This document shows positions 1 to 64,000 of a DNA stretch of 64,000 nucleotides, one piece after another. Location: contig NC_088305.1 of NCBI RefSeq assembly GCF_032854445.1, positions 7,631,606 through 7,695,605 on the forward strand, given 5' to 3'. Position 1 is the first letter of the stretch, and the number at the start of each line of letters is the position of its first letter. Made by a program: the position numbers and the translations under genes. Under the pieces are notes generated by a model. It saw only the letters and a list, made by a program, of their open reading frames with translations. It had not been told where the DNA came from and did no database searches. Source of the stretch: Liolophura sinensis (Eukaryota; Mollusca; Polyplacophora; Chitonida; Chitonidae).

Positions 1-356
1 ATGAAGCATTCCAAAACGACAACTAGTAATCTACGACTAGAAGTAGAAATGTACGATGGGAAGTAGTAATTTTACGATAGGAAATAGTAATTGTCGATGA
101 CGAGTGGTAATCTTTGATGGCAAGTAGTGATTCACGATGACCAGTAGTAATCTACGATTGCGAATAGTAATTTGCGATGGTAAATAGTAATCTATGGTGG
201 CAAGTAGTAATTTACGATGACCAGTAGTAATCTACGATTGCGAATAGTAATTTGTGATAGTAACTAGTAATCCGTGGTGGCAAGTAGTAATTTACGATGA
301 CCAGTAATAATCTAGGACCGCCAGTAGTAATCTATGATGGCGAGTAGTAATCTGCT
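1..356. repeat. 20-bp minisatellite, unit A
   Basis: Head-to-tail units of about 20 bp built on tagtaatctacgatgrcsag, roughly 17 copies with point changes. It marks the left edge of each duplicated unit. The array probably starts outside the window. Confidence 0.9.
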
Positions 357-490
357 TGGCCCGGTATTCGTATAATATGGCTGGGTGGGGAGTCATGTCA
401 GTTGTCTTCTGCTTTTACTTCAGTTGCGGCAGCATGAAAAACGGTTAAATACGGCGTTAAACCCAAACATTTATTCATTCATTCATTCAT
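357..490 (+). mobile_element. SINE-2 relic
   Basis: Contains the SINE-2 body motifs ggctgggtgggg, gtcatgtc and cagttgcggcagca, then the tail motif acggcgttaaacccaaaca and an attc repeat. The tRNA-like head is missing. Same position in units B (26300-26430) and C (33145-33270), so it predates the duplication. Confidence 0.65.
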
Positions 491-2227
491 TCAATGAAAT
501 GCATTTGTGTTTGGGGATCCAATGAAATAGTTAACGAGCTTTAGTTCCATGTTCATAACATTGACTCTTTGAAGAAACACCCAATTTCACCCACTAAATG
601 TGTGCAGAGAACAGAGTAAAGGAGTTACGCCCTTTTGACTACCAGGAGCTTACAGGACATTTACCGCTAGCCGATTTTCATGTCGTTCGCTAAGATCTGG
701 CACCATGCATACTGTTTACGACAATATAAGTCGAAGGAGCTTTCTACAACTATTACCATTCGTAGTCCGTAAAGGGCGTTCCAAGTCGATATTCGCAAGA
801 TCCATTTCCAAAACAACGTTTAACACTAGCTCCCAAAGATAAAGGTATGTAAGAAATTATGCAAATATGAAATAAAGCCAGTAACACACAAGAGAGTAGC
901 GGTCATCAGTTTTCAATGATACCGGGTAGACGGTGGATATTCCAGGCAGTGCTGTTGGAAATGTTTGGACAAAGATCAACTTCAAAGCCTGAAAACTCGG
1001 AATATCAAGTCTGGCCAGAGATGTCAGCAGGTAAATATGAACACTAATCCTTTAAGAATGATGATTCCCCATCCGAGTCCCTGTCCATAATCTTACACAC
1101 CCAGTCTATGATCCTGTAGTAATGTAACCTACATAGTGTACATCCAACTGGAGTCTCACTGGCAAAAAGCTCTAGTGTTGTTACACTAAAACTTCACGAA
1201 ATACTATCACGATAGATCAACCATGCCACGTCTTATTTTCATCTATGCAAATAATGCTGCTCAGCCGGCACAAAAGAGCAATCATTGGCGATAATTGTGA
1301 TTCTTTGTAAAGATTCAACTGTTCCTCCTCGTTTCTCCACAACGTAACCGTGATTTTTGCCATTTCAAGTCATTTCCAATTAGCTCTAACTTCGAGAAAC
1401 AGGCACGACCGAACATCTTCAACATTGATCTGGGACGGGAGATTTGGGTGGGTGGTGGTCTTGAGTGGGCAAAGAGGGTTGCAGCCCAAGAGATTTGAGT
1501 TCAGGGATCGCCCAAGCCCCGAAATCCATTGATTCTCAGATGCCCCGAGATGCATTCTAAGCGATAACCGTGGGAATAAAATGGGATTGACCTTGGAATT
1601 CTGAAGGTGCAGTTTTTCGTACGTATTTAAACCTATATATTGTATTAGGAAGTTTTATGTATAGAACGTTTACCCTGGATTTTAATGGCAGTGGTTTTTG
1701 TTGTTGTTGTTTTTTTAATTGTTCTTAACTGTCATGCCAAAAGCAAATAATGGTGTGTTTGAAGCAAAATGAATACTGTCTGACTGACTGCAATTATCAG
1801 GGGCAATACACTGATGAAGGAACAAAATGAACAGCAAGCCTGCATGAAATTAAAACCATTTTAAACTAAATCATTAAACTCTATTTGTGGGTTGAAGTGG
1901 CTTGCTTGGGCCTAGGCAGGTAAATATCGGAAATTGTTGAAAACAGACCTCAGCATTCAATTTAATTGTACTAGCTTGGACCTAAAACACTACCAATATT
2001 GTTGATAACACCCGCCTTCAGACTTTAACATTTAATGGATTTATTTTAGTTTAAAATATTTAAAAATAAATATCTGGTATGGTAAGGCGGGTAAACGGCC
2101 CCAATGCAAGAAACTGTGTCCCTCAAGAAACGAAGCTGATTAAAACTGTCACTGATGGCTGCTGACACTTTCGTCAGGCCACTCCTTTTTTCAACTTTGT
2201 TTTAAAAATAAATTTGAATATTTTGTG
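491..2227. other. Duplicated spacer, no gene recognised
   Basis: Present in all three units (26430-28150 and 33270-34980) with only scattered changes. A 61-codon minus-strand frame at 1370-1555 stays open in all three copies, but it has no recognisable domain, and close similarity of the copies is enough to explain it. I see no splice-supported gene. Confidence 0.6.
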
Positions 2228-2455
2228 ACCCAGGAGCATCTCATCAATGCGGTCGATGTAAGCCCGATTCCAGGTCATGTTGCCTTCCTCTTCGGCCGTC
2301 CGTAAGAAGGTTTGTCAGCAACCTGCCGATGGTCGTGGGTTTCCCCGGGCTCTGTCCAGTTTCCTCTCACTATAATACTGGCCGCCGGCGTATAATTGAA
2401 ATATTCTTGAGTACGGCGTAAAACAGCAATCAAATAAATAAACAAATATTTCTTT
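2228..2455 (+). mobile_element. SINE-1, 5'-shortened
   Basis: Body motifs atctcatcaatgcggtcgatg, atggtcgtgggtttcccc, ctggccgccggcgtataa and the tail cggcgtaaaacagcaatcaa plus aaataaata. The head begins inside the tRNA-like part. Copies at 28152-28380 and 34983-35210 show it was in place before the duplication. Confidence 0.8.
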
Positions 2456-2469
2456 TAGCGAGTCGTCTA

Positions 2470-2605
2470 CATTCTCCAGCCGTAAGTGGGAAGCTTTGGC
2501 AGCAACATGCAAATGGTCGTGGGTTTCCCCGGTTTTGCCCGGTTTCCTCCCACCATAATACTGGTCGCCGGCGTATAAGTGAAATATTCATGAGTACTTC
2601 TGTGC
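2470..2605 (+). mobile_element. SINE-1 fragment next to the previous copy
   Basis: A second, shorter SINE-1 body (ccagccgtaagtgggaag, atggtcgtgggtttcccc, gtataagtgaaatattca) directly follows the first in the same orientation. The tail is lost. Conserved in units B (28395-28530) and C (35225-35350). Confidence 0.75.
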
Positions 2606-2970
2606 AAGTACTATGAAACACAATGCTTAAACGGTCAAATTTCCAAAAGGGAGAAAAATTATCCAAAAATGAGAAAGAGAACCCTATAATTAATGTATAT
2701 GTATTCGGAAAGCAGCAGTTCATGTCATGTTTCGGTTTATTTACTTCGTAACGGTTTATGTGGTTCCAATTTGCTATTTCTTATGTGTATTTTAGGGCTC
2801 TGTGCACACGTTTATAGGTATCGCTGTAAGTATATTCTGCTCACCAAGCAAGCATCATGCTTATCCAGTTGTCATTCCCCAGTTTTTGTTTATTTTATTT
2901 TAGTCTCAACAGCAGTCTTCATACAGATTTGCACTCCGTATTGGTTGAAGACGAAGGCCAGACTGCGGAA

Positions 2971-3211
2971 GCCACCACACTAGCGTCCTCCACCACACTA
3001 GGGTCCTCCACCACACTAGCGTCCTCCACCACACTAACGTCCTCAACCACACTAGCGTCCTCAACCACACTAGCGTCCACCATCACATTAGCGTCCTCCA
3101 CCACACTAGCGTCCTCCACCACACTAGCGCCCACCACCATACTTGGGTCCTCCACCACACTACCGTCCACCACCACACTAGCGTCCTCCACCATACTAGC
3201 GTCCTCAGCCA
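2971..3211. repeat. 18-bp minisatellite within a Thr/Ser-rich reading frame, unit A
   Basis: About 13 units of accacactagcgtcctcc. Because 18 is a multiple of three, the plus frame 2857-3228 (123 codons) reads T-T-L-A-S-S over and over, and the opposite strand is open too (V-V-E-D-A-S). A possible splice acceptor (tttattttattttag) lies just upstream at about 2905. It might be a mucin-like exon, but no other exon or domain is visible, so I call it a repeat and leave the coding question open. Confidence 0.8.
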
Positions 3212-3228
3212 TTGATCATCTCTTATGA

Positions 3229-4914
3229 GTGTATATTTCCTAGTTTTCAAAGCAAATGCATGTATGTTCGGGTCAAATTTATTCCTTGACGCAACTTCAG
3301 ACAACAGCAGTATTCTGCTTTAACTGACACGAACAGGCAGCGAAAAGTCAGTGTTCTATCAGACAATTCCTGTGATAGCGTAAGGAGACGAACAGCCAGT
3401 GTAGCCTTCATCTGTATGGTGGTGTTTTGCCAGTAATTTCTAGCCTCAAAATGACCGTTGCCCCGATTGCCTTTAACATGTGGATGCACAGAGAGTTGCC
3501 ACTACAGACACATTCCAGTGACATATTGGTTTCAACTCCTGTCAGTCAGTAATAGTAACTATAAGGTAGGGTACATCCTGATCGAGCCGTCAATCATGCA
3601 GATCGATGAAGGAAAGTTTAAGGTTTTGAGGAGTTTGTGTTGGACATCGCTAGCTTGATTGATTGAAGATGCCTCCACTACTGACTGTTACCAAGGCAGC
3701 AGAAACACAAAGGGCAAGAGAATTTACAAATCCCTTAACCATGGTCTGGTGTGTCATACCATATGCACACATCATACAAATCAGATCTCAAACCCATGAG
3801 GCATAATTTGCCATGCAGAACTACAAACGTGAGTGACACTTTCTTATCGAGCGAAACAGAACAGAGTTTGCGAAAACTGACACAAACAAAACTGTTTTTA
3901 GTCTTGAAACGGAGACGGGAAACACTGTACTGTATGCATACTGACACCACACAGCCGTTACATGACACAGTATTATAACGAAGTAACAACTAATAGTATG
4001 AAATAATCATTGATGGTTTAAAGTAATCCCTGGTGGTGACAAATAATCCCTGATGGTCTCAAGAATTCATGGACTGTGTCTAATAAACACAGCTGGTGAC
4101 AAATTAACACGCAGACAGCATTGGGACATCAACGTAATATATATTATAAATCACTCATCACACGAAATAACAGTTCTGTGGCTTGTGGCAAAGCTGACTT
4201 ACGGTATTTGTCTGTAGTCTACACTATATTTTGTAACCAGTGGGGTCATGGGTTCGAAATCTGACCGCCGCCATGTACGTGACAGATTCATCGTTACAAC
4301 GTAACCCAACACTGGTATAATTCAAACACTCCATCTCCGTGCCTACAGCAGGAAAATGATAAATCCCTCAGAGACAGGTAGTCCAAAATATGGGCGGGAA
4401 CCCTTTGTAATAATAATAATAATCTCCACCTACAGCATAACAAATATGTCATAAAGTTAGTTACAACCCTAGCTTGATTGACATTCTGTATGTTTCACTG
4501 TCAGTTCATTCCTGGCGATTGGCGATGGTTTACTTCTTCCAATGGTAAACCAAAGCGCCCTTACGTGAATGAAAACTTCATCGGAACGTTTTTGAACACA
4601 GATATATGGAAGAATCGCGCAATAAGGCAACGAATCGGTTCATTACACAGGGCCCTGGCTGGCATGGACGGAGAAAGCGTTGTTCTGTAGCGGGTGGGCA
4701 GCATTTAGTAAAGAATCATTTGTTCCATTCATGAACTCGGTCGCGATCGTACAAGAATAATAATATTGAACTGGGGCATTAATAGTAAAAATTAATAATA
4801 TTTGACTGGAGCATTGATTAGTGAAAACCTGAATCCCAGATGTTTGTATTCCTGAAAAATATTACCACACTCCTAGAAAAGTAAGAACCCTTACTGGATT
4901 TTATCATCTTTCTT
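3229..4914. other. Duplicated spacer between the 18-bp array and GPCR1-A
   Basis: Shared with unit C (35914-37602) and mostly with unit B (29136-30442). Short open frames at 3458-3658 (66 codons) and 4478-4690 (70 codons) recur in the copies; the 70-codon frame has the same protein at 37166-37378. Neither has a recognisable domain or a clear promoter. An (aat)n run lies near 4410-4425. Probably noncoding flank of GPCR1. Confidence 0.55.
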
Positions 4915-5901
4915 TTAAGTTTCTTTGCAACACTTTGACATTTTATATCTGATCTTGTTGGTGACTGTGCTCAGTGGAAAGCGGAACAGTTTGCACACAA
5001 TATCGTGAAACGTAGGCAAGATCAACAAGAGTGTGTTATTCCAAAAGGGCGTTAGTAAATTTGGAAAATGAAAGGCGATGAACACAGGGAAGGGAATTAG
5101 AGACCACAAAACGTACATCGCAGCGATCGAAGCGAACTTTCTCGGCTTAACGCGTTGCTCCCTCAGGTGTTTTTCCAACCCGTACTTTTGACCTCCGGGT
5201 TTGTCGCTAGGCTTTCTCCACGACGATCCAATGAAAGTGAAGTAAACTACTCTTATCGTGGCAATCTGGCCGATAACAAACATGATGAGGAGCAGGAGGT
5301 AGATTGAAAGCAGATACTGCCTCGGATATGACCGCCAGTCACAGGTGGTTGTGTTGCCTGAGGCGTGGACGCCGCTTGTGGTTTTTCCCGTCATGTTGTT
5401 GTTGCACTGATCTATCCGCATTATTAAGACGGCGGCGGGAACGGCACTGTGGAGAAGCAGCCCAGCCAACAAGACAACTACGGTGATTGTCACAGCCCTG
5501 TTGGTTCGCAGACCTAATGATTGAAGCGGGAAAACCAGAGATTTACCCACCAGGAATTTCATTCCAAGTGACGCCAAGTAATACCACAATAAGCCAAACG
5601 TTCGGATTGCTAAAATGATTAAACATTTGGTATCAGCAGTAGAAGGCGGTGAAGTAGAGAAAGGTGGCAGTAGTGCTGAAGCTGGAAACACTGCCATGGC
5701 GAAAAATATTGCGCCGAGACAGAAATCTATTGCGCCAAACGTTGTAATGTTTGATTTTCTAAACCTGATAGCGATAACACACAATACATTAAGCACAATC
5801 AGTATACCTCCGAAAACAACCATGGTCACTAAACCTACCACTGTTACTGCATTAGCGGGATTACTTGAGTTCTCCACCAGTCCACTGTAATTGGTATCCA
5901 T
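4915..5901 (-). CDS. GPCR1-A, divergent 7TM receptor (328 aa)
   Basis: An intronless 7TM protein that probably sits in the plasma membrane; the ligand is unknown. Hydrophobic segments lie at about residues 18-48, 57-80, 92-122, 134-160, 196-225, 257-282 and 290-312. The N-terminus has sites for N-glycosylation (NYS, NSS). Cysteines at the start of TM3 (TKCLI) and in loop 2 (TTCDW) could form the usual class A disulfide. The DRY position reads around LGMKFLVGKS, there is no NPxxY in TM7, and TM6 has LWSLIPFP. The start is supported by an in-frame TAA two codons upstream. It shares the CDWxxYP loop motif with GPCR2, so both belong to one divergent rhodopsin-like group. The gene lies on the same strand as FReP-A, with about 3.3 kb between the two coding regions. 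Assignment to the 7TM fold is strong, to a named receptor class weak. Confidence 0.85.
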   Translation of the reverse strand: MDTNYSGLVENSSNPANAVTVVGLVTMVVFGGILIVLNVLCVIAIRFRKSNITTFGAIDFCLGAIFFAMAVFPASALLPPFSTSPPSTADTKCLIILAIRTFGLLWYYLASLGMKFLVGKSLVFPLQSLGLRTNRAVTITVVVLLAGLLLHSAVPAAVLIMRIDQCNNNMTGKTTSGVHASGNTTTCDWRSYPRQYLLSIYLLLLIMFVIGQIATIRVVYFTFIGSSWRKPSDKPGGQKYGLEKHLREQRVKPRKFASIAAMYVLWSLIPFPVFIAFHFPNLLTPFWNNTLLLILPTFHDIVCKLFRFPLSTVTNKIRYKMSKCCKET

Positions 5902-8900
5902 GTTTTAGTCCCTCAGTGTAAATAGCCCTTGTTTAAGCTAAACTCCGATTTAAAGCAGATATGGTCTGTTGTGATTCCCGGTATCAGTCTGTGTGAGACT
6001 GTCAATATTGGCAGTAACAGAACAAGGCACACTTCGTATGAATAATTCTGCTATGCAACCGGAACTAGAACGACCGGTAAAATAAAGCGAAGCGACATCT
6101 AGTGATGTCCACCATCGTGTGGGCGTCAAAGTACCTCCAATCAAGAGCCAAAAGCACCTCCATTCTAGAGTCTAAGGACATCTAATCAAAATCCAAAAGG
6201 ACGTCCAATCAAGAGTCAAAAGTGCATCCGATCGGGAGTCAAACGAACTTTCAATCCAGACTTTTTACACATGTCATAAAGCAACTAATACAGTAGAGTT
6301 TGCTGCACTATTTGAGTTCTGACTAAACGTCTTTGTATCTCATCTGGGCTAGGTTCGAGTTTGTAAAGAGTATATCACAGAGAAAGTTATCCACCACACA
6401 CCCATTTGTTATAGCTGTGCTGCTCGAGGAGGAAAACCCGCGGGCTGCACTCCGCGCAGTTGGTGGTTACTTACGTGTAACGGACTTACTGCGTAAACCA
6501 GCTAGTTCCTCTACAAAATTTTTGTCATAACATACTTGTCAGATTCTATGCCACGATTTCACCAAATGTTCTTCTTCCCGTCAACTTTCCGCCCGCCAGG
6601 TGAATCCACACTGATTCCACAGCCAGGTCCTAAAACTACCCCATACAATTTCCACACTATTATTTACATAGTGCTTTCAGACAAGCATAACGGGACTTGC
6701 TGCAGTGATTAATGGTCAGCTACATGTAAACTGTCCTGTCATAACCAAGCTTTATCAATTAGGAACATAATGGCATTGGCTCCAGAGTAGCAGTATGTTA
6801 TTATCGTTGATAAAACGCTAGGTTCACAGTTGGGTGACTAATACGACAACAGAAATGTATCAGCTCTGCTCAGACCATCAAGTTCACGACTGCAATGTAG
6901 TGTCAGGCCATTGATTATGCATATCAGGCTTTGGGCTGTTTATTTTAAAGGACCAGACAGCACCTGGCTAAAACATATTCCAATCGAAAGCAGGATTCTC
7001 AAGCGTTCTAAAAAGTATCACACTTTATTATTGTTATGCGATTTCACCGAATAACACGTAGAACAAAATGTTAATACTGCACAAATGGCTGGTGTGAATC
7101 GTGAGACATCTTGAGAATTTTCTCCAATCCAACACGCTGCTCTCAGATTGTGTGGCCTAAGTTGTAACGCAGCTTTTATCCTTTCACTCCATGAAGTGGC
7201 ATTCACTCCGTGAAGACATCATTTTGACATCGTTTACAACGATTTAGTCACGTATAGGCGAGGGACCATTTCATGTGGGGCAAAATCACCAGCACAACGC
7301 CTCCGGAGGCTACGACCTTAACCAGGAATACCTCATCTGTGCATCCGCAGGCTATTTAAAACTGTAAATGACACATTAAACTTACTGTATCAACTGCACC
7401 TGTGTGGAAGAAATATCCTTCCAGTATGTCTATCTGCCACTTGTATCTGTCATAGGCTACTGCTTTGACTATAATACGGAAAATAACTTCAACGCTAGAG
7501 AGCTATCGCAAACGTGACGTCACCTTGCTATCGATAATGGAGAAGCGCTGAAGCTGTGTCAAAACTTAACATTCATTAACTTTTATGGGTTGAAAAAAAT
7601 CTAAAAGATATTTAATGCCGCTTCAAGATACTTTGAATGGTAGCCTTTCAGTAGACATAAACATTAGTCACTTTCACTTTCACATTAGTCAGCATGCCAC
7701 CTATATTTAGCCGTCTGTAAATTTAGTCACACTATTTACCAAAATTGCCCTTAGCAAGTGGGACGTTACACCACAAATTCTACACACAGATATGTTGAAA
7801 GTTCATATCATTGCAATGACATGCTGGACAATGGGCGTGACGTTGACGCTTTACGGCACGGCTAGGGAAATCGGAGCACCTTAACCTGTACAAAATAAAT
7901 TAATATTATCAATATTTGATGAATTTTCTTTCCTAAAATATTTGTTTTAGGAGATGTACAAGGTAAGGTAGGTAATTAAAATCAGGCTTTGTGTACAGCT
8001 GCCAATATTGTGTATACCCGCCCGTGTTAAAATGATGTGGTTTACTCCCAAAGTGTCGCAAACCGACGATGTCACGGTACAAAAGGATGTCACCTAGGAG
8101 TCCCCTATTAAAACAAATATTTGGTTGCTCTTCACGAAATAAAGACCATCTTCATGTTTGGGGCAATGGTTGCTTATAGTTTCTTGTGTTCATTCATAAA
8201 AAAACCTTAATGTTAAAACGCCTAAACAAAATTTCAATTGACTTGTTAGTGATGTAATGTTATTGGTTCCAATCCAAACGTTCCACGAGTTTTGCTATAT
8301 TGACGGTTAGTAAAAACTGATTTCCTTTGTACACTACAAATACATTTGTGTTGTCTGTGACGCTATGCTTTTTTTTTCATTGTTGAAAAGAAAAATACGT
8401 AATATGGAGTCAGAATTATTGTAAGATGAAATACGTCTTTGTAGCGTAAGGCTTTGACATGTTGAGGACAGCACGGTCAAAAAAACTAAGTTCAAGGTCA
8501 TAATGAATGGAAGGTATGTATCGATCCGTATTTCTGGAAACTAAAAACTTGGAAAGAATGAAACGGATCTCAGATCTAGGAACAGATATGACAACTCTCA
8601 CACAGTTTTGGGATCTCTCTGAGCAATGTCGCACAGCTCAGAACTACACTGTATCCTGACGACATTGTTGAGGGCCGTTGTTCATTTATTTATTTATTGA
8701 TTTTACTGATGATATACGCCGAATTCAAGAGTATTTCACTTATACGACGACGGACAGCATTATTATGGGAGGATGAAAACGCCTTGATCATCCGCAGGTT
8801 GCTGGAGGACCAGCATAAGATTTGAACTCACAACGACCGCATTTGCGCTGGCATTCAAACCACCTCAGCCACGGAGACCCCCATCTATGCTGTGAGTCTT

Positions 8901-9162
8901 TTAAATTGCTAATGTGGCAGTGGTTTGGCCCCATATTCACTATTTAGACAAAAAATAGCAGTAAAACATTTTTAACTGTAATATGCCCATGTTATATGTC
9001 TTGGAGATTGGCTTTATGATTATGATGACCTCGAGCGGCTGTTATCCGAATGTCTTCCTCGACGCGTGAAGTCTTTGTTTGTATATACATTTAAACCATA
9101 AAGATAAAAAGAGATTCCGTGCTTAAGTGAAGCGTAGCGTCCCCAGAACTGTGTAGATGACG
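5902..9162. other. Intergenic region between GPCR1-A and FReP-A
   Basis: No gene seen. Most of it aligns in pieces with 38590-41364 of unit C, with many indels. The stretch 7918-8990 is an insertion absent from C; it joins cleanly with 41180-41220, and it contains the SINE-1 copy at 8683-8883. The block at 7780-7900 resembles bases near 41050-41170 and 55680-55710. Confidence 0.6.
8683..8883 (-). mobile_element. SINE-1, near full length
   Basis: Reads tail to head on the plus strand: tttatttatttattgatttt, gtatttcacttatacgacga, gaactcacaacgaccgcat, and ends at ccacctcagccacggagac, the tRNA-like head. It lies inside the unit A-specific insert 7918-8990. Confidence 0.8.
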
Positions 9163-16998
<7,836 letters not shown>

Positions 16999-41364: not shown

Positions 41365-49318
<7,954 letters not shown>

Positions 49319-51520: not shown

Positions 51521-51579
51521 TTATCAAACCATCCGAAACATCATGATCCTTCGTATAAAACTTGTAATGAACCACAGAC

Positions 51580-52590: not shown

Positions 52591-52770
52591 CACTGAAAAC
52601 TGTTGACCCCCAGCATGAATCCGTCTTAATCTCATACTTTATATACGTTCCTATTTCTGTAAATGTTTGTGTTGAACGTTGTTTTGGGAAGTGGCCTCGG
52701 GACTATTGCCTAGGAACATCCATTTTCGTTGACGGTTGGTATATGAGTGTTTGTTGTGACACCTAAATAA
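52575..52770 (+). repeat. Interspersed repeat R5 copy
   Basis: ccaatatcactgaaaactgt to ttgacggttggtatatgagt. Another partial copy at 50835-50990. Confidence 0.6.
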
Positions 52771-53429: not shown

Positions 53430-54195
53430 ACCCACCTTTACAAAACGAAGATTAAAATGTTTAGCCCAATATTACAAAACGAGGACTGAAATGTTCAACC
53501 CACCAATAAAAACGAAGACTGAAATGTTTAACCTACCATTACAAAACGAGGATTGAACTGTTCAACCCACCAATACAAAACGAGGATTGAAATGTTTAAC
53601 CCACCATTACAAAACGAGGATTGAACTGTTCAACCCACCATTACAAAACGAACACTGAAATGTTCTACCCACCATTACAAAACGAGGATTGAACTGTTCA
53701 ACCCACCATTACAAAACGAGGATTGAACTGTTCAACCCACCATTACAAAACGAGGAGTGGACTGTTCGACCCACCATTACAAAACGAGGATTGAACTGTG
53801 CAACCAACCATTACAAAACGAGGATTGAAGTGTTCAAATCATTATTACAAAACGACGATTGAAGTGTTCAACCACTATTACAAAACGAGCATTGAAGTGT
53901 TCAACCCACCAATAGAAGACGAGGATTGAACTGTTCAACCGACCATTACAAAACGAGGATTGAAATGTTCAACCCACCATTACAAAACGAGGATTGAACT
54001 GTTCAAACCACCAATACAAAAAGAGGATTGAAATGTTTAACCCACCATTACAAAACGAGGATTGAACTGTTCAACCCACCAATACAAAACGAACACTGAA
54101 ATATTCTACCTACCATTACAAAACGAGGATTGAACTGTTCAACCCACCATTACAAACCGAGGATTGAAATGTTCAACCCACCATTACAAAATGTT
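53430..54195. repeat. 34-bp satellite, unit C only
   Basis: About 22 units of ccaccattacaaaacgagga-ttgaactgttcaac. It ends about 110 bp before the stop codon side of GPCR2-C. Unit A has only about one unit at the matching place (18915-18950). Confidence 0.93.
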
Positions 54196-54305
54196 TATTT
54201 TTCGCATTTATACCTCCCTTGCTGACAATCTGCTTGGTATATAAATGTGCATCGGCAAAGCTATTGGGTCCGAAACAAAATAATGTTGCAATAACATATT
54301 ATTTC

Positions 54306-55319
54306 TTATAAATATTTCGAAAAAAATAGTTTTATGCCCTTTCTAATCCTGCTGGTCATAACGATCAAATTACAAGCATTCAACGTTACACTCAGGCCTA
54401 ACATTACCGTCCACACAGCGTTTAGAACAGCTGGGTTGGAACAGTGCGTGGAACAGTGAAGCATAGCAAGTGTTACGGTCACAAACGGACCGTAGAAAAA
54501 CACCATATTGAAAACCAACAAGAAACAGTTTCTGTTCCTTTTCCTGATCAATTCTCGGACTCGCTCAGCGGCATCTGTACTCTGAGCAACATTGTCTGTA
54601 ACGGTCATGATTTGGACTTGGATGCTTCGACTTTTTTTGTTGGCAAATGCCATCATTACAGAGCTGAGCACTGCCAAGAGTAGATCGGCTGGGACGACTA
54701 TTCCGTATGTAAAGAGGTAAAGAAACCACATGGGATATACTGACCAATCACAACCTCGGAGGACCTTTGTCCTACTCCCCATGGCCAGGTTGACCTCTAC
54801 GGTTTTGGAGTGGATAAAAATCGCCGTCAGTGTCCCTATGGCAACAACTGGTAAAACGATGGAAAGAGCAATTCCGACTTTTACCAAGCCCCACTTGTTG
54901 GTCATGGTTCCAGGACGTAAAATTTCCATGGCCAGTACAACGGCACAGTAAGATGTCATTGTTATACTTACAACAACAACAAGGATCTGTAAACTGCAAA
55001 CAACTAAACAACTTGTTGTATGTTGAAGAATAGAAGCCGAATGAAAAAAAAGGAAGGACAACGGCATCATTATGACTGCCACTAACACTCCACCGAGATG
55101 AAAAAACACCATTAATTCCTTGTTGTGTAAAAGGTCGTCGCTGAAGATATGTCCGACTATTACCAATACTGTAGATGTGAGAGCGATGCAGGCGATGACG
55201 ACAACAACAACGCTGAGTGACGCGATGACCGAAAGGGACAGCTCGCGTGATAAAGCTGGTGTTGAATTCATCATGGACTGGGTGAAGTTTGTGAATATAA
55301 CTGGTGTCGAATTCATCAT
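54306..55319 (-). CDS. GPCR2-C, divergent 7TM receptor (337 aa)
   Basis: Paralogue of GPCR2-A, same length from the MMNSTPVIF start and about 85% identical by eye. Keeps the doubled MMNSTP N-terminus (MMNSTPVIFTNFTQSMMNST), the TSC and CDWSVYP cysteines, basic loop 3 (KKSRSIQVQI, VRELIRKRNRN) and seven hydrophobic segments. DRY is replaced by AMEILRP, and NPxxY is absent. Two residues are inserted before TM4 (GLVKVG) and the C-terminus ends FFSKYL. Intact, so probably functional. The opposite strand is open for 222 codons (54772-55440), which is only a mirror of this gene. Confidence 0.87.
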   Translation of the reverse strand: MMNSTPVIFTNFTQSMMNSTPALSRELSLSVIASLSVVVVVIACIALTSTVLVIVGHIFSDDLLHNKELMVFFHLGGVLVAVIMMPLSFLFFHSASILQHTTSCLVVCSLQILVVVVSITMTSYCAVVLAMEILRPGTMTNKWGLVKVGIALSIVLPVVAIGTLTAIFIHSKTVEVNLAMGSRTKVLRGCDWSVYPMWFLYLFTYGIVVPADLLLAVLSSVMMAFANKKSRSIQVQIMTVTDNVAQSTDAAERVRELIRKRNRNCFLLVFNMVFFYGPFVTVTLAMLHCSTHCSNPAVLNAVWTVMLGLSVTLNACNLIVMTSRIRKGIKLFFSKYL

Positions 55320-55734
55320 GAACCGGATGAAGTCTAAACTTATCTGAGGAAAAAACACCGAACGAACGCACACTGTAGAAATAGTGTTGAATATCCGCTA
55401 AGCCTCTATATAAACACACGACGAAAAATGTTGTGGGCAATTACACGGATCTGCACGGCACAGATGATCGAGGTACATGGCGTGATGCTCGCACGTGTAC
55501 TTCTGTCATAAACACTGTGACACAGAAAACGCTAGCGTCACAAGGGGCGTAGTTATGGCAACAAAGAAGGTCGTACATGTATTTACTGGACATGTGACTT
55601 GCTTTTAATATCAGTACTATGCCTTGATTTTACTTTATCGATCGGCCTTTAGTCTGTGACACGTAATAACACAAGCTCTGCACATGGATATGTTGGAAGT
55701 ATATATTGTTGCAAGGAAAATGAAGTTATAAAAC

Positions 55735-56250
55735 TTTTTCTGATTCATAATGTTAAGGTCTATAAGCTCGGTTTCGAAGGCAAGAACCCATTTCCTCGGG
55801 TGACGTCATAATTATTCAAAAGCAATTGGCATACTGGATATTGGGCGGAGTTTAACGTGTTTTGGGACAGAGGGCGACGCCAGTTACCTAAACTACTATC
55901 GACTTAACTGTAAAACTCTGTTGCTGACACTGCCATGTTTGAAATTGTTTACACGTTTTGGTATAATAAAAACTTAATAAATGAATTTTATTTTATCTCT
56001 TGTCTCTATGATATCACAGTGGGATGGATGTTAAGAAATTAGTCTATTCGCAGACAGTAGAGTAGGCTGTGTTACTGCGTGGAGTTTTTTCTAACCGCTT
56101 GCTGGAGCAGCCATTGTAACACAAATTACTCCCCACGCTCATTGCCAAGCATGCAAGTTGCTTTTGAGAAATTATGACATCACCCAAGACAATGCGCTCT
56201 TGGTGTCGAAACTAAGCTTTTGATGTTTAACATTATGAATTACATTATTA
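55735..56250. mobile_element. Foldback element (MITE-like)
   Basis: Left arm 55738-55855 (gattcataatgttaag, ctcgggtgacgtcataatta, ttcaaaagcaattggcatac) is matched in reverse complement by the right arm 56135-56250 (ggcaatgagc ... ttgcttttgagaaattatga, catcacccaagacaatgcgc, aacattatgaatta). Imperfect arms of about 115 bp, centre about 280 bp. Absent from unit A between the matching points near 20395. No coding capacity. Confidence 0.78.
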
Positions 56251-56414
56251 GGTATTCTAACTGCATTTTCTCTGTAATAATATGGACGCTCAGCGTGTCA
56301 ATGTGTAGAGCCTGGGTCGTTACCTGCCTCTGGCAAAAGGCAATTTTGGTAGCCAGTATGACCGATTTTACAGACAGCTGAATATAGGCGACTCTCTAAA
56401 CGAAACAGACTATA

Positions 56415-56488
56415 GAGTTCAACTCACAGCGATCGCACTGGAGCGAGTTTCCAGGGTCATTGTGCCCTCAGCCACGGAGGCTCTGTAT
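56415..56488 (-). mobile_element. SINE-1 head fragment
   Basis: gagttcaactcacagcgatc to ctcagccacggaggctctg. Only the tRNA-like end. Confidence 0.65.
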
Positions 56489-57729
56489 ATTTTTTTATAA
56501 GATTTATAGCTACACAACACGCCCATCGGAAAATAACATATGTGCGAATGTGTATAAGGTCGATTGTTTCTCCGTGCATACTTTGTTTAAACTAAAACAA
56601 CAACAACAACATCTCCATTATGAAAAATTTAACTCTCAGAATGTGCATGTGATCCGTTGTTTGTCGATGAATACTTTGTTTAAACTAAAGCAGTTTGTGC
56701 GTTCGTGAATGACAATCGCAAAGCAAGCGCCATCGAAGATAATGGACATTCTAAACTGTTAAAAATCAATTTCAGATGTCACCATTAACTGTGATTTCTC
56801 CAAGAAGAAATAAGCTAATATTAGCTCATCCGTGTAATGGGTGCCACATTGTAGCCGTGATTGACAACGGCTTGAATTGTTTTCGGTATCCTGTGAAATG
56901 TTTCTGTTGGAATCAATAACATAGAAACGAAACGTCTTTTACTTAAAATACTTGTGGAAGACATTGTATTTCATCTTAGCATTTCCTTTGGTGTTTCTTT
57001 AGATATTGTCATTGTTGTCATGGCGCTGAAAAGAGATCAACACTATCTGGCAGATTAGGCGTATAAATACCAAACAGAACACATTTTGAAAACCAACAAA
57101 CAAGGAAGCGTATGAGTACAAATATAGCAACAACTGAATAGTTTTCGTTCTGAAAATATGTATCTCCTTTGAACATTTTCACTCCCTAACGTTTCACCCA
57201 AAACGGATATCGACCGGTTTATAAAATGACTCCGGAGACAACGCTGTCGATGGCCAGTAGTTATATTTGGTTAGCAGGGTTTAACACAAGCTCACGAACA
57301 CTGGAAGATAAAGAGGAAGTACAGTCATTATGTAACCGCTAGTGGATATGAGTTAATATCATTATCACATTTTCCTTGCCTGCTATGGTGAAATTCAACC
57401 TACCTTACTAATCTCCAGTGATGGAGTTAGTCTAGCCAACGAAATCCAGCTTCGACAATTACTGATGTCATAGCCATTCTGTAAAAAGGGCGTCCCCTCA
57501 AAGAAAAAAATGATAAGGACCTCACCTTGATTATGTTTATTTTTTTAGTCAACGAATACGTACGTGGACTGTTTGAATTTCTTATCAATAAAATGTATGT
57601 AAATTTGGGGAACTATACATCAATTATGTCGAGGCCGTACAAAAACAATTTCTCACTTGTAAGAAGGTTTATGGGTGGTGGAAACCGCATTTTGTCGAAG
57701 GACCAGCATATCATTTCCATCGAGGTTGG

Positions 57730-57985
57730 TGCTAGCGAGGTACCGAAAACAATGAACGCTAGATAAGCTCTAAGATTCCTTGTACGAGGCCTGGGATTGA
57801 ACCAACATCTCGGATGTCCGACAGATGAATGACATGGAGTACTAAGCCAAAAAGATCTCTGCTCTCCACCCGGACCTCTCAACCTTGGATTGTAAGTAAC
57901 AGATCGAAAATGCCAGAGGTGCCATCCCTATGATTTAATCGCTTCACCTGTTCCCGTCACGCGTTAACAAATCCATTAAGAGTAC
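57730..57985 (-). mobile_element. SINE-3, unit C copy
   Basis: Same insertion as 21160-21400. Confidence 0.65.
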
Positions 57986-58089
57986 CTTGTACTTAAACAG
58001 AGGAACAATCACACCATATGCAGATCATAGAGAGACCAACTGAGACCAATTACATACCTTGAAAATGTTGGTTTTAAGATCTGTATATT

Positions 58090-58745
58090 AAAAAAAGATG
58101 TTCTGGCACTCTGTAGGGTGACAGGAAGTAAAACGGCAGATAAAAAGAATTAAAGACGTACAGCATAGAAAGTAAAACCAGAGCTGCGACAACAGTGTGA
58201 TAGTTGGCAAGCGGTGACACGTAAAATACGACCTCTTCTCAGCGTACCTCAATTAGAGTTTTATTCTAACTGTTCATGTAAATGTATATATAGTAGCAAT
58301 TTACACGCCCCATAGCATTATGCCTTAAACAGAATTAGGTAAAAAAATCAGTGAAATTAAACGCAATTTATTAGAATTCATTGGTCTAGATAACTCAAAA
58401 TAACATGTTGTCATCACATTTAACTTAAAATCACATTAAAACAATGCAAATGGACCAGGCATGGGGACTGCTTAGTCCAGCTGCAGAATCCTGGTTTATG
58501 CGCAAATACAATATAATTAAAGACGTACAGTATAGAGAGTAAAACCAGAGCAGCGACGACAGTGTGATAGTTGGCAAGTGGTCACACGTAACCTGTGAAA
58601 TTCGGCCTCTTTTACCTCAGTCAGGGTTTGATTTTAACTGTTCATGTAAATGCTTAAACAGTAGTAATGTGCACGCCCCCTAGCACCATAGCTTAAGTAA
58701 AATTAAGTTAAAAAAACAGTGTCCTGTTCATTGGGGATCCAAATG
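58090..58745 (+). repeat. Two adjacent R4 repeats, unit C
   Basis: cagcgacgacagtgtgatag, aatgcttaaacagtagtaat and the cagaatcctggtttatgc block, in two copies. Matches 22060-22560. Confidence 0.68.
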
Positions 58746-59324
58746 TATATAAGTGCAAATTATGACGGGACGCTTCATTCGAATTCCCTGTGCTCATTAG
58801 GAAAGAGTGGTTAGCCAGGTAAAATGTTTCCGTTTCTATCATCATGTTGGCATACTTGGACCTGGGTATATAGAACATGACTGGCTTGCATTCTTGGACC
58901 TGGAACATGTATATAGGACATGATTAGCTTACACGAACAAGTAAGCAGTCGCGTTTAGCAACTATGCTGCGGCTACAGATGGTGTCATGGCGAATGTTGG
59001 ATTGCTCCATAAACAAAAACCTCGCGGATACAAATAAAAAACGAAATCAGTCTTGCCCTGAATCAACAACAGTAGTAGACAGATACTGAAATCTAACGGA
59101 GAATAAATAAATTCTGGATATAGGCATAACCTTTAGAGTTGAAAAAGGAATACTGTCTGACGTTCCATATTGCTGAAGTCGAAAACATATCTTTATCAAT
59201 TCTTCATTAAACGCTGCACGTTCAACTTAAACCATTTAGCCTCGTGCTGATTGTGACCTGTCTGATACCGCTGAATCCCTTGGAATTTCTACATGTCATA
59301 CATATCAGAGTGTTCCATACTATA

Positions 59325-59546
59325 AATGGGGGCCTCCCTAGCCCCTTTGGTTAGCGCGCTAAAAGAGTCTCTGACTAATGCGGTCTCTGTGAGATCAAGT
59401 CCAGCTCATGCTAGCTTCCTCTCCGGCCGTACGTGGGAAGGTCTTCCAGCAAACGTGCAGAAAGTCGTGGGTTTTCCCTGGCCTGCCCGGTTTCCTTCTG
59501 TCGTATAAGTGGAATATTCTTGATTACGGCGTAAAACACCAATGAA

Positions 59547-59581
<35 letters not shown>

Positions 59582-59586
59582 ATGAA

Positions 59587-59625
<39 letters not shown>

Positions 59626-59635
59626 GTAAATCTAT
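59325..59635 (+). mobile_element. SINE-1, full length, with long AAAT tail
   Basis: Head gcctccctagcccctttggt-tagcgcgc, body gagatcaagtccagctcatg, tail acggcgtaaaacaccaatga and about 20 AAAT units. No match in unit A, so recent. Confidence 0.9.
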
Positions 59636-59865
59636 ACTATAATACCATAAGTATAAAACATATACCCTTCGATCGAATGTTTTAAATTGTTGGTACGTCC
59701 GTTTTTGCATACAAATATTTCACTTGTAATAATGTAGACATCAACCTTTATTTCTCTTTCACCAAAGAGTTACTAATTTGCGCATGCGAAACCAAAAAAA
59801 AAGTGTGTTAGAATATGCAATCATCAAATCTTGTTTAGCCTGCTCTGTAAACAATAGTGCCCCAT

Positions 59866-59955
59866 TTATTTATTTATTTGATTGGTGTTTTACGCCGTAC
59901 TCAAGAATGTTTCACTAAAGGACGGAGAAAACCCACGACCATCTGCAGGTTTGCT
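59866..59955 (-). mobile_element. SINE-1 fragment
   Basis: tatttgattggtgttttacg, then jumps from gtttcactaaagg to cggagaaaacccacgaccat: internal loss relative to 23075-23210. Confidence 0.75.
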
Positions 59956-60707
59956 CCGCTTATTAACACCTTTCTGTTTGAGTTTGTAAACGTTTCCTGT
60001 TGTACAATCATAAAAAACCATGGTTAATAACTACACAGATGTGTGTTTCACATGTTTACAAAAGTATACACTTCTACACGTTTAACGGATTTTCACACTA
60101 AATATTAACACAAAACAATGCTTACCGGACTACTTGTGTCAGGCCTACATGAAAATATCCACCACATTACTTAATAAACATTTCACATGTATAGACAAGT
60201 ATAAAAATACATCTCTGTAGTAACTATACATAGCTTTTATATGATAATACACCAGGACATGTTTTCACACTGTAACAGAAAGATGTTTATAAACAGAACA
60301 CTAGTGTTTAGTATTATAAATGGAATGGTTTTATACATATTTTCACAATCAATCACTGAGTATTTTTGTACCTACAGTTTTGTGTAATGTAGATCAGTAT
60401 GTAACTGATATTCGACAGAATATCCACCCAAAGCCTCATGGACAGAATCTGCAGTGGGATTTTTAACTTACGTCCAAATTTCCAAACATCAATATAATGC
60501 CAAGCTAAGATCCATCATGTTTAAATTCTAAACAGGTAGCTTAACGAAATGTCTACTAATTTTTTCACAATATCAGGTGCCGTGAATAAGAAAAACAGTA
60601 ATTACACGATTCAATATTTAGTCAGAAAATATCTTTCTGTCATGCGTTCGCATGGTATCATGTTTACTCGATGCGGGTCAAACTGCATTCGTCTAATGTT
60701 TCCCAGG

Positions 60708-60967
60708 GGCCTCTGTGGCTCGGGTGATTAGCGCATTACCGCAGCGTAATGACCTGGGAGTCTCTCACCCAACGGTGGCTGTGTGTTCAAGTCCAGCTCA
60801 TGCTGGCTTCCTCTCCGGCCGTACGTGGGAAGGTCAGTAGCAGCCTGCGAATGGTCGTGGGTTTCCCCCAGGCTGTGCCGGGTTTCCTCCCATTATAATG
60901 CTGGCCGCCGTCGTATAAGTGCAATATTCTTGAGTACGAACTATAACACCAGTTAAATAAATAATTT
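60708..60967 (+). mobile_element. SINE-1, full length
   Basis: Head ggggcctctgtggctcgggt-gattagcgc, B-box-like gtgttcaagtcc, body gctggccgccgtcgtataag. In unit A only a stump of it (tcgtataagtgcaatatttt near 23903) remains, so A lost most of this copy. A second tail stump lies at 61030-61055. Confidence 0.88.
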
Positions 60968-61449
60968 CTGTGGTAGGACGTTCACCATCTGTAAGCCTAT
61001 GGCATACATGGGTATGCCTATGGAGGAAACCGGGTCGGCGTAAAACACCAAATAAATACTACCTTCGCTTACTTATATCTTGTAACTTCAGGGGACTGGC
61101 TGACAGGTCGCTATGACAACACTACCAAATCTTTGATGCATTGAATATTACACAAATATACTTTCCCTAGACATTCTGACTAAACCAAGTATCATTTACT
61201 TCCTAAGGCATCCCTGCAGATAATTGTACATTGACGTACATCCATATTGGAAGCATACCTGCAAATAAGTCATCGAGAGCCATGTACAACAAAACACGCA
61301 ACAATTGCTCTGACTGTATAATTCAAAGCGAGTCTCAAGTCTGGAATTACGCTGACTGTAGCATAATTGAGTTTATGATCGGAACCAGGCAAAACATAAC
61401 AATATAATGAAAAATTGTTTTAAGTTGAGAAGATAACAATCCAACATTC

Positions 61450-61471
61450 ATGCCCCCCCCCCCCCCCCCCC
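61450..61471. repeat. Poly-C run
   Basis: About 20 C in a row. Exact length not reliable. Confidence 0.9.
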
Positions 61472-61893
61472 ACAACCTCCCATGCAAAAAAAAAATAGTG
61501 GAGTGTGTGTGTGTCCAGTACATGTCGTTAGATGTAGGCCTACACGTTGATCTCCACAGATACTGGACGGACAAATATCCCCGAGACAGCAGCGATTGGC
61601 GAAGCTGAAGTTCCCATCAGGAGGAAGGTAAACACTTCGCTTATAACACGTTTTGACAGCTGTGCCGAGTTCCTGGAGAGTTAAGCTTTTGTTCCGAAGT
61701 CCTGCGTCCACACGCATGCGCCTTGTCCCGGTTGCAAGACGCAAGAATCAAATCTGTATTGAACGACGTTAGTTGTTAACTAATTTGTTGGCAGATATTA
61801 GCAGCGTCCATGGCCGTGACAACGCTAACCATCTTTTCGTCAAATAGGTGACCAAAAAGTTAAGTCTGATCATGCGCCGTTCTTCTGTAGACC

Positions 61894-62790
61894 CTATGGC
61901 GCCTTAAACAACTTCATATAACAATCCTTTACACCATTTCGTATTTGACCGGATATAAGCACTACGTCACATCCTTGGATTACTGCAGCTATCAGACAGG
62001 ACGTACTCCAAATACTATTTATGACAGCCGGGTCGGAATACTGGGCAGGGCAGTGTAACATCAACAAGGTTGTTGCAGGAAAGAGGCAGTTTATAAACCA
62101 AATGTTAACAAGTGTTAGACACAGAAGCCTGTATCGTCGTTTTGACAGCATACTCTTCTCTTAAAGGCTTCTCCACTTTTGGGGGCGTATTCTGATACCG
62201 GCTCTATCTGGGCTTGAATGCTTCTCGCTTTTTGTCTGGCAAAGAGCAGAATGTTATTATTCAGCGCCAATACAATAAGGCATGCAGTGAGATACAATAC
62301 ATAGGCGATTACGTATGCAAACCACGACGGGAAAACAGACCAGTCGCTTGCATCATATGGGCTGGTGGAATTCACGGTTATCTCCCTTCAACTAATGTCG
62401 ATGAAACTAACAGAACACACTTCCACGTAAACAAATGGGAATACTCCAGTAAGGAGCATGCCGATTTTAATGGACTTCTATTTCTTCTCCAAAATATCCA
62501 GGATAGAACGTATTTCTGTTCCATAACATATTCGTGTTAAGTAAATTTAAAATGTACACGAGAACAGCACTTATCTCTCTCTTACAACTGTCATGAAAAT
62601 GGCCCCGAAATTATTCACAGCAATAAATATTTTCGAGTGTACATCATCTTCAACAAGATATGACCCAATGAGAACAAGGGAGTTATCTGCCATGGAGGCA
62701 GCAGCAAACGAGACTATCAGGATAGTGAGGGATAAGACCGCGAGCCCCGGACACCATTTTTGTTGTTATTGATGTTGTTGTCACAAAAGA
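61894..62790 (-). pseudogene. GPCR2-like pseudogene, unit C
   Basis: Minus strand from about 62770: VLSLTILIVSFAAASMADNS (TM1), SYLVEDDVHSKIFIAVNNF and GAIFMTVV (loop and TM2), then TAA stops in a shortened TM3, SIKIGMLLTGVFPFVYVEVC (TM4), a TGA before TVNSTSPYDASDWSVFPSW, TM5 and ARQKARSIQAQIEPV. A frameshift near 62155 leads to LSKRRYRLLCLTL, NIWFINCLFPATTLLMLHCP and SDPAVINSIWSTSC, then SGQIRNGVKDCYMKLF. It follows GPCR2 order throughout. Better preserved than the unit A copy and shares its stops. Confidence 0.82.
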
Positions 62791-63417
62791 CTACATACCC
62801 TGTGTTATATCGAGACTCAGCTTTGCCACCGGCCCTATGTCTGAAGTAGTCTCAACAATTTGCTGAAATGTTTCAGGCAAAAGCAGTTAGCCAGAGTTAC
62901 AGAAAAGACGAAGCAAACACAGGCGTCGATCGAAAGCGCACGCGCCAAGAGCGACTCCGCCTTTGTTCCCTGGACTCTATTTACTCATAATAGGAGATAA
63001 TGGGCGTCAGATTGTATACAAGGACGATCAAATGTTTGCGGAGAAACTTAAAACGTTCTCTATACTTTAAAGATTAGCTATGAAGTTGGGTGAATTTATC
63101 AATGTAATGTATGAACAAGTAATCTATCACAAATTCAAGCCATTATCGGTATACGCACATGACAACTGCATACCTGGGTATTTCGACAGTTATGTTTTGT
63201 ATTGAGGAAAACGGAATCCTACTGAGCATGGCGAATAACTACGCAGCTGTAAGAGTGACATTGTTAGAAAAATTATAAATAGAAATAAATAAGAACAGAA
63301 CTTTTAAAGTTTTAGTTATGTTAGTAAAGATCTTGTGCGCACGACTTAACAAAAATCTCGTGCGCACGACATAATTGTGCATTTCTGTTGGTCAATTGTC
63401 TCGTGTGTATGGCATGT

Positions 63418-63605
63418 ATTTATTTATTTGATATATTTGATTGCTGTTTTACGCCGTACACAAGAATATTCCACTTATACGACAGCGGCCAGCAATATGG
63501 TGTGAGGAAACCAGGCAGAGCCCGGGGAGAACCCACGACCATCCACGTTGTGAATAATTTCAGGGACAGGTTACTGCCAGACCTTCCCACTTACGAGCAA
63601 GACTT
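63418..63605 (-). mobile_element. SINE-1 fragment, unit C end block
   Basis: Same insertion as 25562-25730, with an extra stretch (gttgtgaataatttcaggga) inside. Confidence 0.82.
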
Positions 63606-63884
63606 GTATGTGTTTTCTTCTATTTCAATTTTTTTTCATAACCATGTCACTTTTACGGCTCCATGACTAGCTCTGAGTTAGGAAGACATTAATAGGATTT
63701 TGCAGGAAACAGAAAACATTTCCCATATATTCTACAGACAATTTGTCACCTACATTCCTATTGACACCAGCTCAAACTGTATGCGATCTTGGTGGAGGTC
63801 ATACTACTGACCACAGACGACCTTCATGTGCCGCAACATAAACTGGAACCGTGGAATTACCACCGAATGCAGTCAAGGAATATT

Positions 63885-64000
63885 AGATTTATTTATTTAT
63901 TTATTATTATTTGATTGGAATTTTACACCGTACGTACACAAGAATATTTCGCAGATACGATGGCCCGCATTATGATGGGAAGAAACCGGGCAGAGCCCCG
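63885..64000 (-). mobile_element. SINE-1, cut by the window end
   Basis: tttatttatttattattatt, ttttacaccgtacgtacaca, cccgcattatgatgggaag. Same insertion as 31492-31722. Confidence 0.82.

What the first reader, a model, noticed from the sequence alone, without database searches (positions are those of the whole stretch)
1..64000. A tandem array of GPCR plus fibrinogen-lectin gene modules
Two full units repeat the same set (GPCR1, secreted FReP, GPCR2, dead GPCR), all on one strand, with a third collapsed unit between them. A secreted pattern-recognition-type protein locked in one duplicating block with two related orphan-like receptors is an unusual pairing. It could be a co-expanding sensory or immune module. 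The co-duplication is seen in the sequence; shared function is inference.
Basis: partly seen in the sequence, partly recalled or inferred. Interest (0 to 1): 0.75.

Follow-up and report, generated by a model that had tools for sequence, protein, structure and literature searches.

The report
Tandem-duplicated receptor and lectin-like gene block
A stretch of animal (perhaps mollusc) DNA carrying two receptor-like genes, one secreted fibrinogen-domain protein gene and one dead receptor gene was copied in tandem; this looks like an ordinary duplication, and nothing found here shows that the neighbours work together.

Summary
Two full units (U1 1-25929, U3 32931-64000) carry, collinear and on the minus strand, GPCR1, a secreted fibrinogen-domain gene, GPCR2 and a broken third receptor. 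A collapsed unit (U2, 25930 to about 32930) lies between; it lacks about 20.4 kb and all four genes. Corrections: the 'FReP' is modelled as a 273/274-aa, five-exon, single-domain FBG protein with a signal-peptide-like start and no IgSF part (an sFReD, not a FREP/VIgL). It keeps the calcium aspartates, but not the acetyl-binding pocket of FIBCD1. The receptors fit a 7TM topology and their PDB profile matches are all class A GPCRs (E 0.018 at best), but they hit no Pfam 7TM family and lack the DRY arginine. GPCR1-GPCR2 kinship is weak; GPCR2 and the pseudogene are clearly kin. The three intact genes show dN/dS below 1. The block is a mosaic: about 95% identical around the unit junctions, about 85-87% in the middle, which fits one older duplication plus later local exchange. 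No upstream sequence is shared among the genes. Best reading: segmental tandem duplication of chance neighbours from two large families. A functional lectin-receptor module is not excluded, but lacks positive evidence. Conservation in other species could not be tested.

The parts
1..25929 (.). Unit 1 (full). The window starts in register with 25930, the first base of unit 2
   Evidence: blastn self-comparison; junction sequences
25930..32930 (.). Unit 2 (collapsed): left part 25930-30442 and right part 30453-31562, joined where U1 position 4606 meets 24969 (20.4 kb missing, about 10 unmatched bases at the join); none of the genes found
   Evidence: junction; no tblastn hit here for any of five queries
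32931..64000 (.). Unit 3 (full, runs to the window end)
4915..5904 (-). GPCR1 of U1, single-exon ORF, 328 aa from Met (in-frame stop two codons before it)
37603..38592 (-). GPCR1 of U3, 96% aa identity to the U1 copy
16863..16998 (-). Fibrinogen-domain gene of U1, exon 1: start codon, signal-peptide-like stretch, phase-1 donor
   Evidence: prediction, no transcript
15115..15272 (-). Fibrinogen-domain gene of U1, exon 2
14520..14616 (-). Fibrinogen-domain gene of U1, exon 3
10222..10386 (-). Fibrinogen-domain gene of U1, exon 4
9163..9428 (-). Fibrinogen-domain gene of U1, exon 5 with stop codon
49180..49318 (-). Fibrinogen-domain gene of U3, exon 1 (signal-peptide-like)
46985..47142 (-). Fibrinogen-domain gene of U3, exon 2
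46421..46517 (-). Fibrinogen-domain gene of U3, exon 3
42433..42597 (-). Fibrinogen-domain gene of U3, exon 4
41365..41630 (-). Fibrinogen-domain gene of U3, exon 5 with stop codon
19080..20093 (-). GPCR2 of U1, 337 aa from the conserved double Met; single-exon ORF
   Evidence: start inferred from conservation
54306..55319 (-). GPCR2 of U3, 84% aa identity
24096..24881 (-). Broken GPCR (kin of GPCR2) of U1, with frameshifts and stops
61912..62750 (-). Broken GPCR of U3; three in-frame stops lie at the same places as in U1

Best explanation
A genomic block of about 25-30 kb, holding two intact 7TM receptor genes, one secreted single-domain fibrinogen-related (sFReD) gene and an already dead receptor gene, was duplicated in tandem (shown). 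The two full copies then diverged, with later exchange (gene conversion or unequal crossing-over) homogenising the DNA on either side of the unit junctions; a third copy close to U1 was reduced by a 20.4 kb internal deletion or built from a partial duplication (inferred from identities). The intact genes look constrained, each on its own. The receptors most likely act as lineage-specific, atypical class-A-like 7TM proteins, perhaps chemosensory, and the sFReD as a secreted calcium-binding FBG protein in humoral recognition or the matrix (inferred from family). Their neighbourhood is most likely passive hitch-hiking, not a functional module.
For: Collinear self-match. Three shared in-frame stops in the two dead receptor copies, so it died before the duplication and was carried along. 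Intact FBG domain, Pfam E 8.4e-72 and 1.3e-69; GT/AG introns and matching phase in both copies. dN/dS: GPCR1 0.37 (bootstrap 0.14-0.92, 5 of 300 replicates at 1 or more), GPCR2 0.59 (0.38-0.95, 5 of 300), FReP 0.37 (0.24-0.56, 0 of 300). Mosaic noncoding identity: 0.954 left, 0.864/0.870/0.846/0.855 middle, 0.916 and 0.948 right. No upstream similarity between different genes better than E 0.086. Both families are large in snails: 103 FReDs and 219 GPCRs in 772 Mb of B. pfeifferi; by my own arithmetic, random placement would put a GPCR within 5-10 kb of 0.3-0.6 FReDs per such genome.
Against: The three intact genes were kept in both full units, as a functional unit would also predict. A snail precedent for lectin plus GPCR in one protein exists (GRL101). 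Receptor genes flank the FBG gene on both sides, 2.1 and 3.3 kb away in U1, 5.0 and 2.8 kb in U3; a receptor on both sides by independent chance would be rarer than my estimate for one. In B. pfeifferi no obvious hot spots of sFReDs were reported, so the snail proxy does not show sFReD clusters as such. Exon 1 of the FBG gene alone has dN 0.17 above dS 0.13 (45 codons), so constraint is not seen there.
Confidence: 0.82

Rival explanations
1. Functional module: the secreted FBG protein binds a ligand (microbe, odorant carrier or conspecific cue) and hands it to, or itself activates, the neighbouring 7TM receptors; the block is kept together because the parts are co-inherited and co-regulated. 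It would be a split version of the lectin-GPCR fusion GRL101.
For: Co-duplication and co-retention in both full units; dN/dS below 1 for the three genes; GRL101-like GPCRs with a C-type lectin domain form a cluster of paralogues tied to schistosome resistance in B. sudanica (passages).
Against: No shared upstream sequence; uneven divergence of the parts; U2 lacks all genes; receptors have short N-termini and no added ectodomain; chance adjacency is to be expected in genomes with large FReD and GPCR families.
Confidence: 0.06
2. Part of the array is an assembly artefact: U2, about 98% identical to U1 in its left part, is an unpurged allele or haplotig of U1 carrying a deletion and not a third tandem copy.
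For: U1-U2 ungapped identity 0.980 over 4508 aligned columns against 0.955 (4303) for U1-U3; 2% is within reach of heterozygosity in molluscs (recalled).
Against: The U1/U2 and U2/U3 junctions are both clean and carry similar sequence just before the left part; in the right part U2 is nearly as close to U3 (0.953) as to U1 (0.962).
Confidence: 0.12
3. The 7TM genes are not G-protein receptors but another seven-helix membrane protein, or receptors no longer able to couple.
For: No Pfam 7TM hit in any of four proteins; the DRY arginine position is Val or Leu; phmmer of GPCR1 alone gave one chance match, not a GPCR; GPCR1 model of low confidence (mean pLDDT 38.7).
Against: Seven hydrophobic segments with basic inner loops in three of the four proteins, and six above my cut-off in the fourth; PDB profile searches listed class A GPCRs only, 5 of 5 distinct sequences in each (39 and 77 used the same four proteins and gave the same list), best E 0.018 with co-linear TM1-TM4; Cys at TM3 start, Cys before TM5 and Pro seven residues after the DRY place are kept.
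Confidence: 0.12

Closest known systems
sFReD (single FBG-domain FReDs) of planorbid snails
   Same: One C-terminal FBG domain only, as the class is defined in the B. pfeifferi paper (passages, PMC10075465; see also passages of PMC8861042); here with a signal-peptide-like start
   Different: Host species unknown here; no sequence of a snail sFReD was compared; acetyl-pocket residues of FIBCD1 not kept
FREP / VIgL of Biomphalaria
   Same: FBG domain, secreted; members cluster in the genome (passage, PMC5440852)
   Different: No IgSF domain and no interceding region in the five-exon model: not a FREP
Aplysia candidate chemosensory receptors (AcCRa-c)
   Same: Largely intronless, some clustered, class-A-like receptors of similar size (AcCRb 319-364 aa) (passages, PMC2700072)
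   Different: AcCRs keep the TM3-end arginine (ERC motif); GPCR1 and GPCR2 do not. Sequences not compared
GRL101-like GPCRs of B. sudanica (SudRes2)
   Same: A lectin-type domain and a 7TM receptor linked at one locus of clustered paralogues (passages, PMC12297450)
   Different: There a C-type lectin domain is part of the receptor protein; here an FBG protein and the receptors are separate genes

Membership tests
FReD / Fibrinogen_C (PF00147) | Complete FBG domain | tested here: met
   E 8.4e-72 and 1.3e-69 over profile 2-220 of 221
sFReD | FBG domain only (with secretion signal) | tested here: met
   Exon 1 with hydrophobic N-terminus and phase-1 donor joining exon 2 in both units; no signal-peptide program run, no transcript
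FREP / VIgL | One or two IgSF domains upstream of FBG | tested here: not met
   The five-exon model has about 20 residues between signal peptide and FBG domain; Pfam found no IgSF in nine open frames (54-118 aa) between exon 2 and GPCR2 of U1 (a selection of the frames listed). An unseen small exon is not fully excluded
TL5A/ficolin/FIBCD1-type acetyl-binding lectin | S1 pocket Tyr405, His415, Tyr431, Ala432, Trp443 (FIBCD1 numbers, passages PMC3908420) | tested here: not met
   U1 D, Q, T, Y, A; U3 D, Q, A, Y, V. A neighbouring Tyr could stand for Tyr431 if the alignment is shifted by one
TL5A/ficolin/FIBCD1-type acetyl-binding lectin | Calcium aspartates 393 and 395 and the 401-414 disulphide | tested here: met
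   Asp, Asp, Cys, Cys in both units
Class A GPCR | Seven TM helices, N-terminus outside | tested here: met
   Seven segments in three of four proteins, six above the cut-off in GPCR2 of U1; basic residues concentrated in presumed inner loops (hydropathy only)
Class A GPCR | Significant profile match to 7tm_1 | tested here: not met
   No Pfam 7TM family for any of four proteins at E up to 10
Class A GPCR | DRY arginine at TM3 end | tested here: not met
   25 residues after the TM3 Cys stands Val (GPCR1, both copies) or Leu (GPCR2, both copies); Pro at +32 kept in all four. The counting rule is recalled
Class A GPCR | GPCR fold | tested here: inconclusive
   GPCR1 model mean pLDDT 38.7, pTM 0.24; GPCR2 job never accepted (seven tries)
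Conserved FReP-GPCR module | Same order in other species | not testable with these tools
   No animal genomes held; search of the own genome unanswered in ten tries

The most novel reading that the evidence does not exclude
The secreted FBG protein is a ligand carrier or agonist for the two flanking, DRY-less 7TM receptors: a two-gene, split counterpart of the lectin-GPCR fusion GRL101, spread by tandem duplication as one recognition cassette.
Probability: 0.04. Interest if true: 0.72.

Novelty: new member of a known kind. Interest (0 to 1): 0.24.

Why it matters
It is a clean small example of how two large animal gene families (7TM receptors and fibrinogen-domain proteins) can grow by segmental tandem duplication, lose members, and be partly homogenised afterwards. 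If the pairing were shown to be functional it would give a secreted lectin-receptor pair in an invertebrate, which would be testable at once; nothing here demands that.

Tried and rejected
Tried without result: search of the window's own genome for PF00147 (machine not reached each time, same request repeated); a structure model of GPCR1 was too poor to use, so no fold search was run; a model of GPCR2 was never accepted; contig scans with GPCR1 (genome contigs) and GPCR2 (viral contigs) gave no relative, as expected for an animal gene; NCBIfam gave only chance matches for three receptor proteins; no tRNA (bacterial settings) and no Rfam family at gathering score.

Considered and rejected: a FREP/VIgL (no IgSF part found); that the high GPCR1 identity reflects selection alone (the noncoding DNA beside it is also 95% identical); a shared promoter (blastn of seven upstream stretches of about 1-1.2 kb; short motifs were not tested); that the plus-strand ORFs at 2830-3228 and 28755-29135 are genes (they lie over an 18-bp tandem repeat; not scanned against Pfam).

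Literature: nine searches. Of eight papers I saw found passages only. Neither the listings nor those passages describe an FReD gene co-duplicated with GPCR genes; subscription journals and supplementary files were not seen, so this is not a claim that it is unpublished.
Full report
What is there. Self-comparison shows three tandem units in the same orientation. U1 is 1-25929 and U3 is 32931-64000; they match in collinear blocks all along (about three quarters of the U1 sequence outside GPCR1 and GPCR2 aligns). U2 (25930 to about 32930) matches U1 only at both ends: 25930-30442 equals 1-4606, and 30453-31393 equals 24969-25914. So about 20.4 kb is missing, with some ten unmatched bases at the join. 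Similar sequence stands just before the left part at the U1/U2 and U2/U3 junctions. The window begins in register with 25930 and ends inside U3, so the array may continue on both sides.

Genes. All are on the minus strand. GPCR1 (4918-5904; 37606-38592) is a single-exon ORF of 328 aa from Met, with an in-frame stop two codons before that Met in both copies, 96% identical. GPCR2 (19083-20093; 54309-55319) is 337 aa from a conserved double Met, 84% identical. A third receptor, kin of GPCR2, is broken in both units (24096-24881; about 61912-62750). Three in-frame stops lie at the same places in the two copies, and each copy has further lesions of its own, so it was dead before the duplication and was carried along. 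tblastn (E up to 0.01) with the four GPCR proteins and the last exon of the fibrinogen-domain gene found nothing in U2.

The fibrinogen-domain gene. I resolved five exons in each unit, with GT/AG introns and matching phases. Exon 1 (16998-16863; 49318-49180) gives [24 protein letters not shown]..., a signal-peptide-like start, found by searching for a hydrophobic N-terminus with a phase-1 donor conserved in both units. Other candidates listed were passed over by eye: those inside GPCR2, one at 17958 and one in the 52-bp repeat. The products are 273 and 274 aa. Pfam Fibrinogen_C matches the 227-aa part from exon 2 on with E 8.4e-72 and 1.3e-69; the nearest solved structures by sequence of the U1 copy are FIBCD1, tenascin-R and ficolin-3. 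There is no IgSF, EGF or collagen part in the model, and nine open frames between exon 2 and GPCR2 of U1, chosen from those, hold no such domain. So by the definitions printed for Biomphalaria pfeifferi (passages, PMC10075465) it is an sFReD, not a FREP. Against FIBCD1 (residue roles from passages of PMC3908420), the two calcium aspartates and the disulphide cysteines are kept. The acetyl pocket is not: Tyr405 is Asp and His415 is Gln in both units, Ala432 is Tyr, Trp443 is Ala or Val, and Tyr431 is Thr or Ala in the printed alignment, with a Tyr one place away. The 'pattern-recognition' label is therefore a guess from the family.

The receptors. Three of the four proteins show seven hydrophobic segments and the fourth shows six above my cut-off; inner loops are basic, and N-termini are short with N-glycosylation sequons. 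Pfam gives no 7TM family for any of the four, even at E up to 10. Profile searches of PDB sequences list class A GPCRs only: orexin-1 and 5-HT1A receptors, E 0.52-1.3, with all four proteins (the same set in two orders with the same result), and 5-HT1F and bile acid receptors, best E 0.018, with the two GPCR2 copies. phmmer of the U1 GPCR2 frame gave only the bile acid receptor (E 0.05-0.1); phmmer of GPCR1 alone gave a single chance match to a viral capsid protein. Counting from the TM3 cysteine (a recalled rule), the DRY arginine position is Val in both GPCR1 copies and Leu in both GPCR2 copies, while the proline seven residues on is kept in all four. The passages read on Aplysia chemoreceptors (PMC2700072) say that those keep this arginine. 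GPCR1 and GPCR2 share 22% identity and a CDWxxYP motif before TM5, but their kinship is weak (z 2.3; 8 of 500 local shuffles reach the score). GPCR2, over the stretch that tblastn had matched, and a piece of the U3 dead receptor are clear kin (0 of 500); GPCR1 against the same piece was not above shuffles (122 of 500). The AlphaFold model of GPCR1 is unusable (pLDDT 38.7).

History. Noncoding identity U1-U3 is 0.954 left of GPCR1 (354-4914: 4294 of 4501 aligned bases; the tandem repeat at 1-353 left out) and 0.846-0.870 through the middle (5905-24080 in four stretches: 1676 of 1939, 3120 of 3587, 1659 of 1961, 2566 of 3001). It rises to 0.916 at the dead receptor (730 of 797) and 0.948 at the right end (24969-25929: 886 of 935); 23 to 3427 bases per stretch did not align and are left out. 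In 150-base steps the fall comes just upstream of GPCR1 (0.88, then 0.75-0.80 at 6107-6556), with 6557-7006 back at 0.92-0.95, so the edge is not a single sharp break. DNA on either side of the unit junctions was thus probably exchanged more recently than the middle. U2 is closest to U1 (0.980 left, 0.962 right). dS tells the same: GPCR1 0.044, GPCR2 0.149, FReP 0.268. Within the fibrinogen gene, exons 3 and 4 have dS 0.06-0.07 and exons 2 and 5 have 0.43-0.47 (that call numbers them 1-4); exon 1 has dN 0.17 above dS 0.13 over 45 codons, one extra codon of U3 left out. I cannot say whether this is conversion, selection or small numbers.

Constraint. dN/dS is 0.37 (GPCR1), 0.59 (GPCR2) and 0.37 (FReP, five exons), with bootstrap values at or above 1 in 5, 5 and 0 of 300 (without exon 1, gave 0.30 for FReP). 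The three genes look like working genes in both units, the receptors with less margin.

Is the pairing special? Evidence for: both intact receptors and the FBG gene were kept in both full units, with receptor genes 2.1-5.0 kb away on either side. Evidence against: upstream stretches of the different genes share nothing better than E 0.086, the parts diverged unevenly, and U2 lacks everything. In B. pfeifferi there are 103 FReDs (45 of them sFReDs) and 219 GPCRs in 772 Mb; by my own arithmetic, random placement gives 0.3-0.6 FReDs with a GPCR within 5-10 kb, and fewer with one on both sides unless the receptors were already a cluster. B. glabrata GPCR-like genes are reported to cluster, while no obvious hot spots of sFReDs were seen in B. 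pfeifferi. B. sudanica has 437 GPCR genes and Bulinus truncatus 709. These are proxies, since the species of the window is unknown. One chance neighbourhood followed by block duplication is enough. The nearest precedent for a functional link is GRL101, a GPCR with a built-in C-type lectin domain in a cluster of paralogues tied to schistosome resistance (passages); the present genes are separate and the receptors have no such ectodomain.

Verdict. The thing is most likely an ordinary segmental tandem duplication; its interest as a module rests on tests that could not be run here.

Noticed in passing
12078-13168 (+): A Tc1/mariner-like transposase in two overlapping frames (12422-13168: Pfam DDE_3, E 7e-10; 12078-12470: weak helix-turn-helix match, HTH_23 E 7e-5, below its cut-off), inside the long intron between exons 3 and 4 of the U1 fibrinogen-domain gene; this stretch did not align to U3.
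   Followed up: partly
2231-2448, 13646-13854, 25571-25722, 31049-31200, 48702-48786, 60754-60964 and others: A short dispersed repeat of about 75-150 bp in both orientations, perhaps a MITE-like element.
   Followed up: no
53412-54191: A 34-bp minisatellite with 23 copies just downstream of GPCR2 in U3; the U1 site (about 18901-18945) holds about one copy.
   Followed up: partly
15740-16031, 47590-47959, 14291-14462, 45848-46360, 13475-13642, 43623-44258: 52-bp, 43-bp and 32-bp minisatellites in introns of the fibrinogen-domain gene that differ in copy number between units.
   Followed up: no
FReP exons 14520-14616 and 10222-10386 against 15115-15272 and 9163-9428: Exons 3-4 are 95-99% identical between units, exons 2 and 5 only 82-85%: patchwork divergence inside one gene.
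   Followed up: partly
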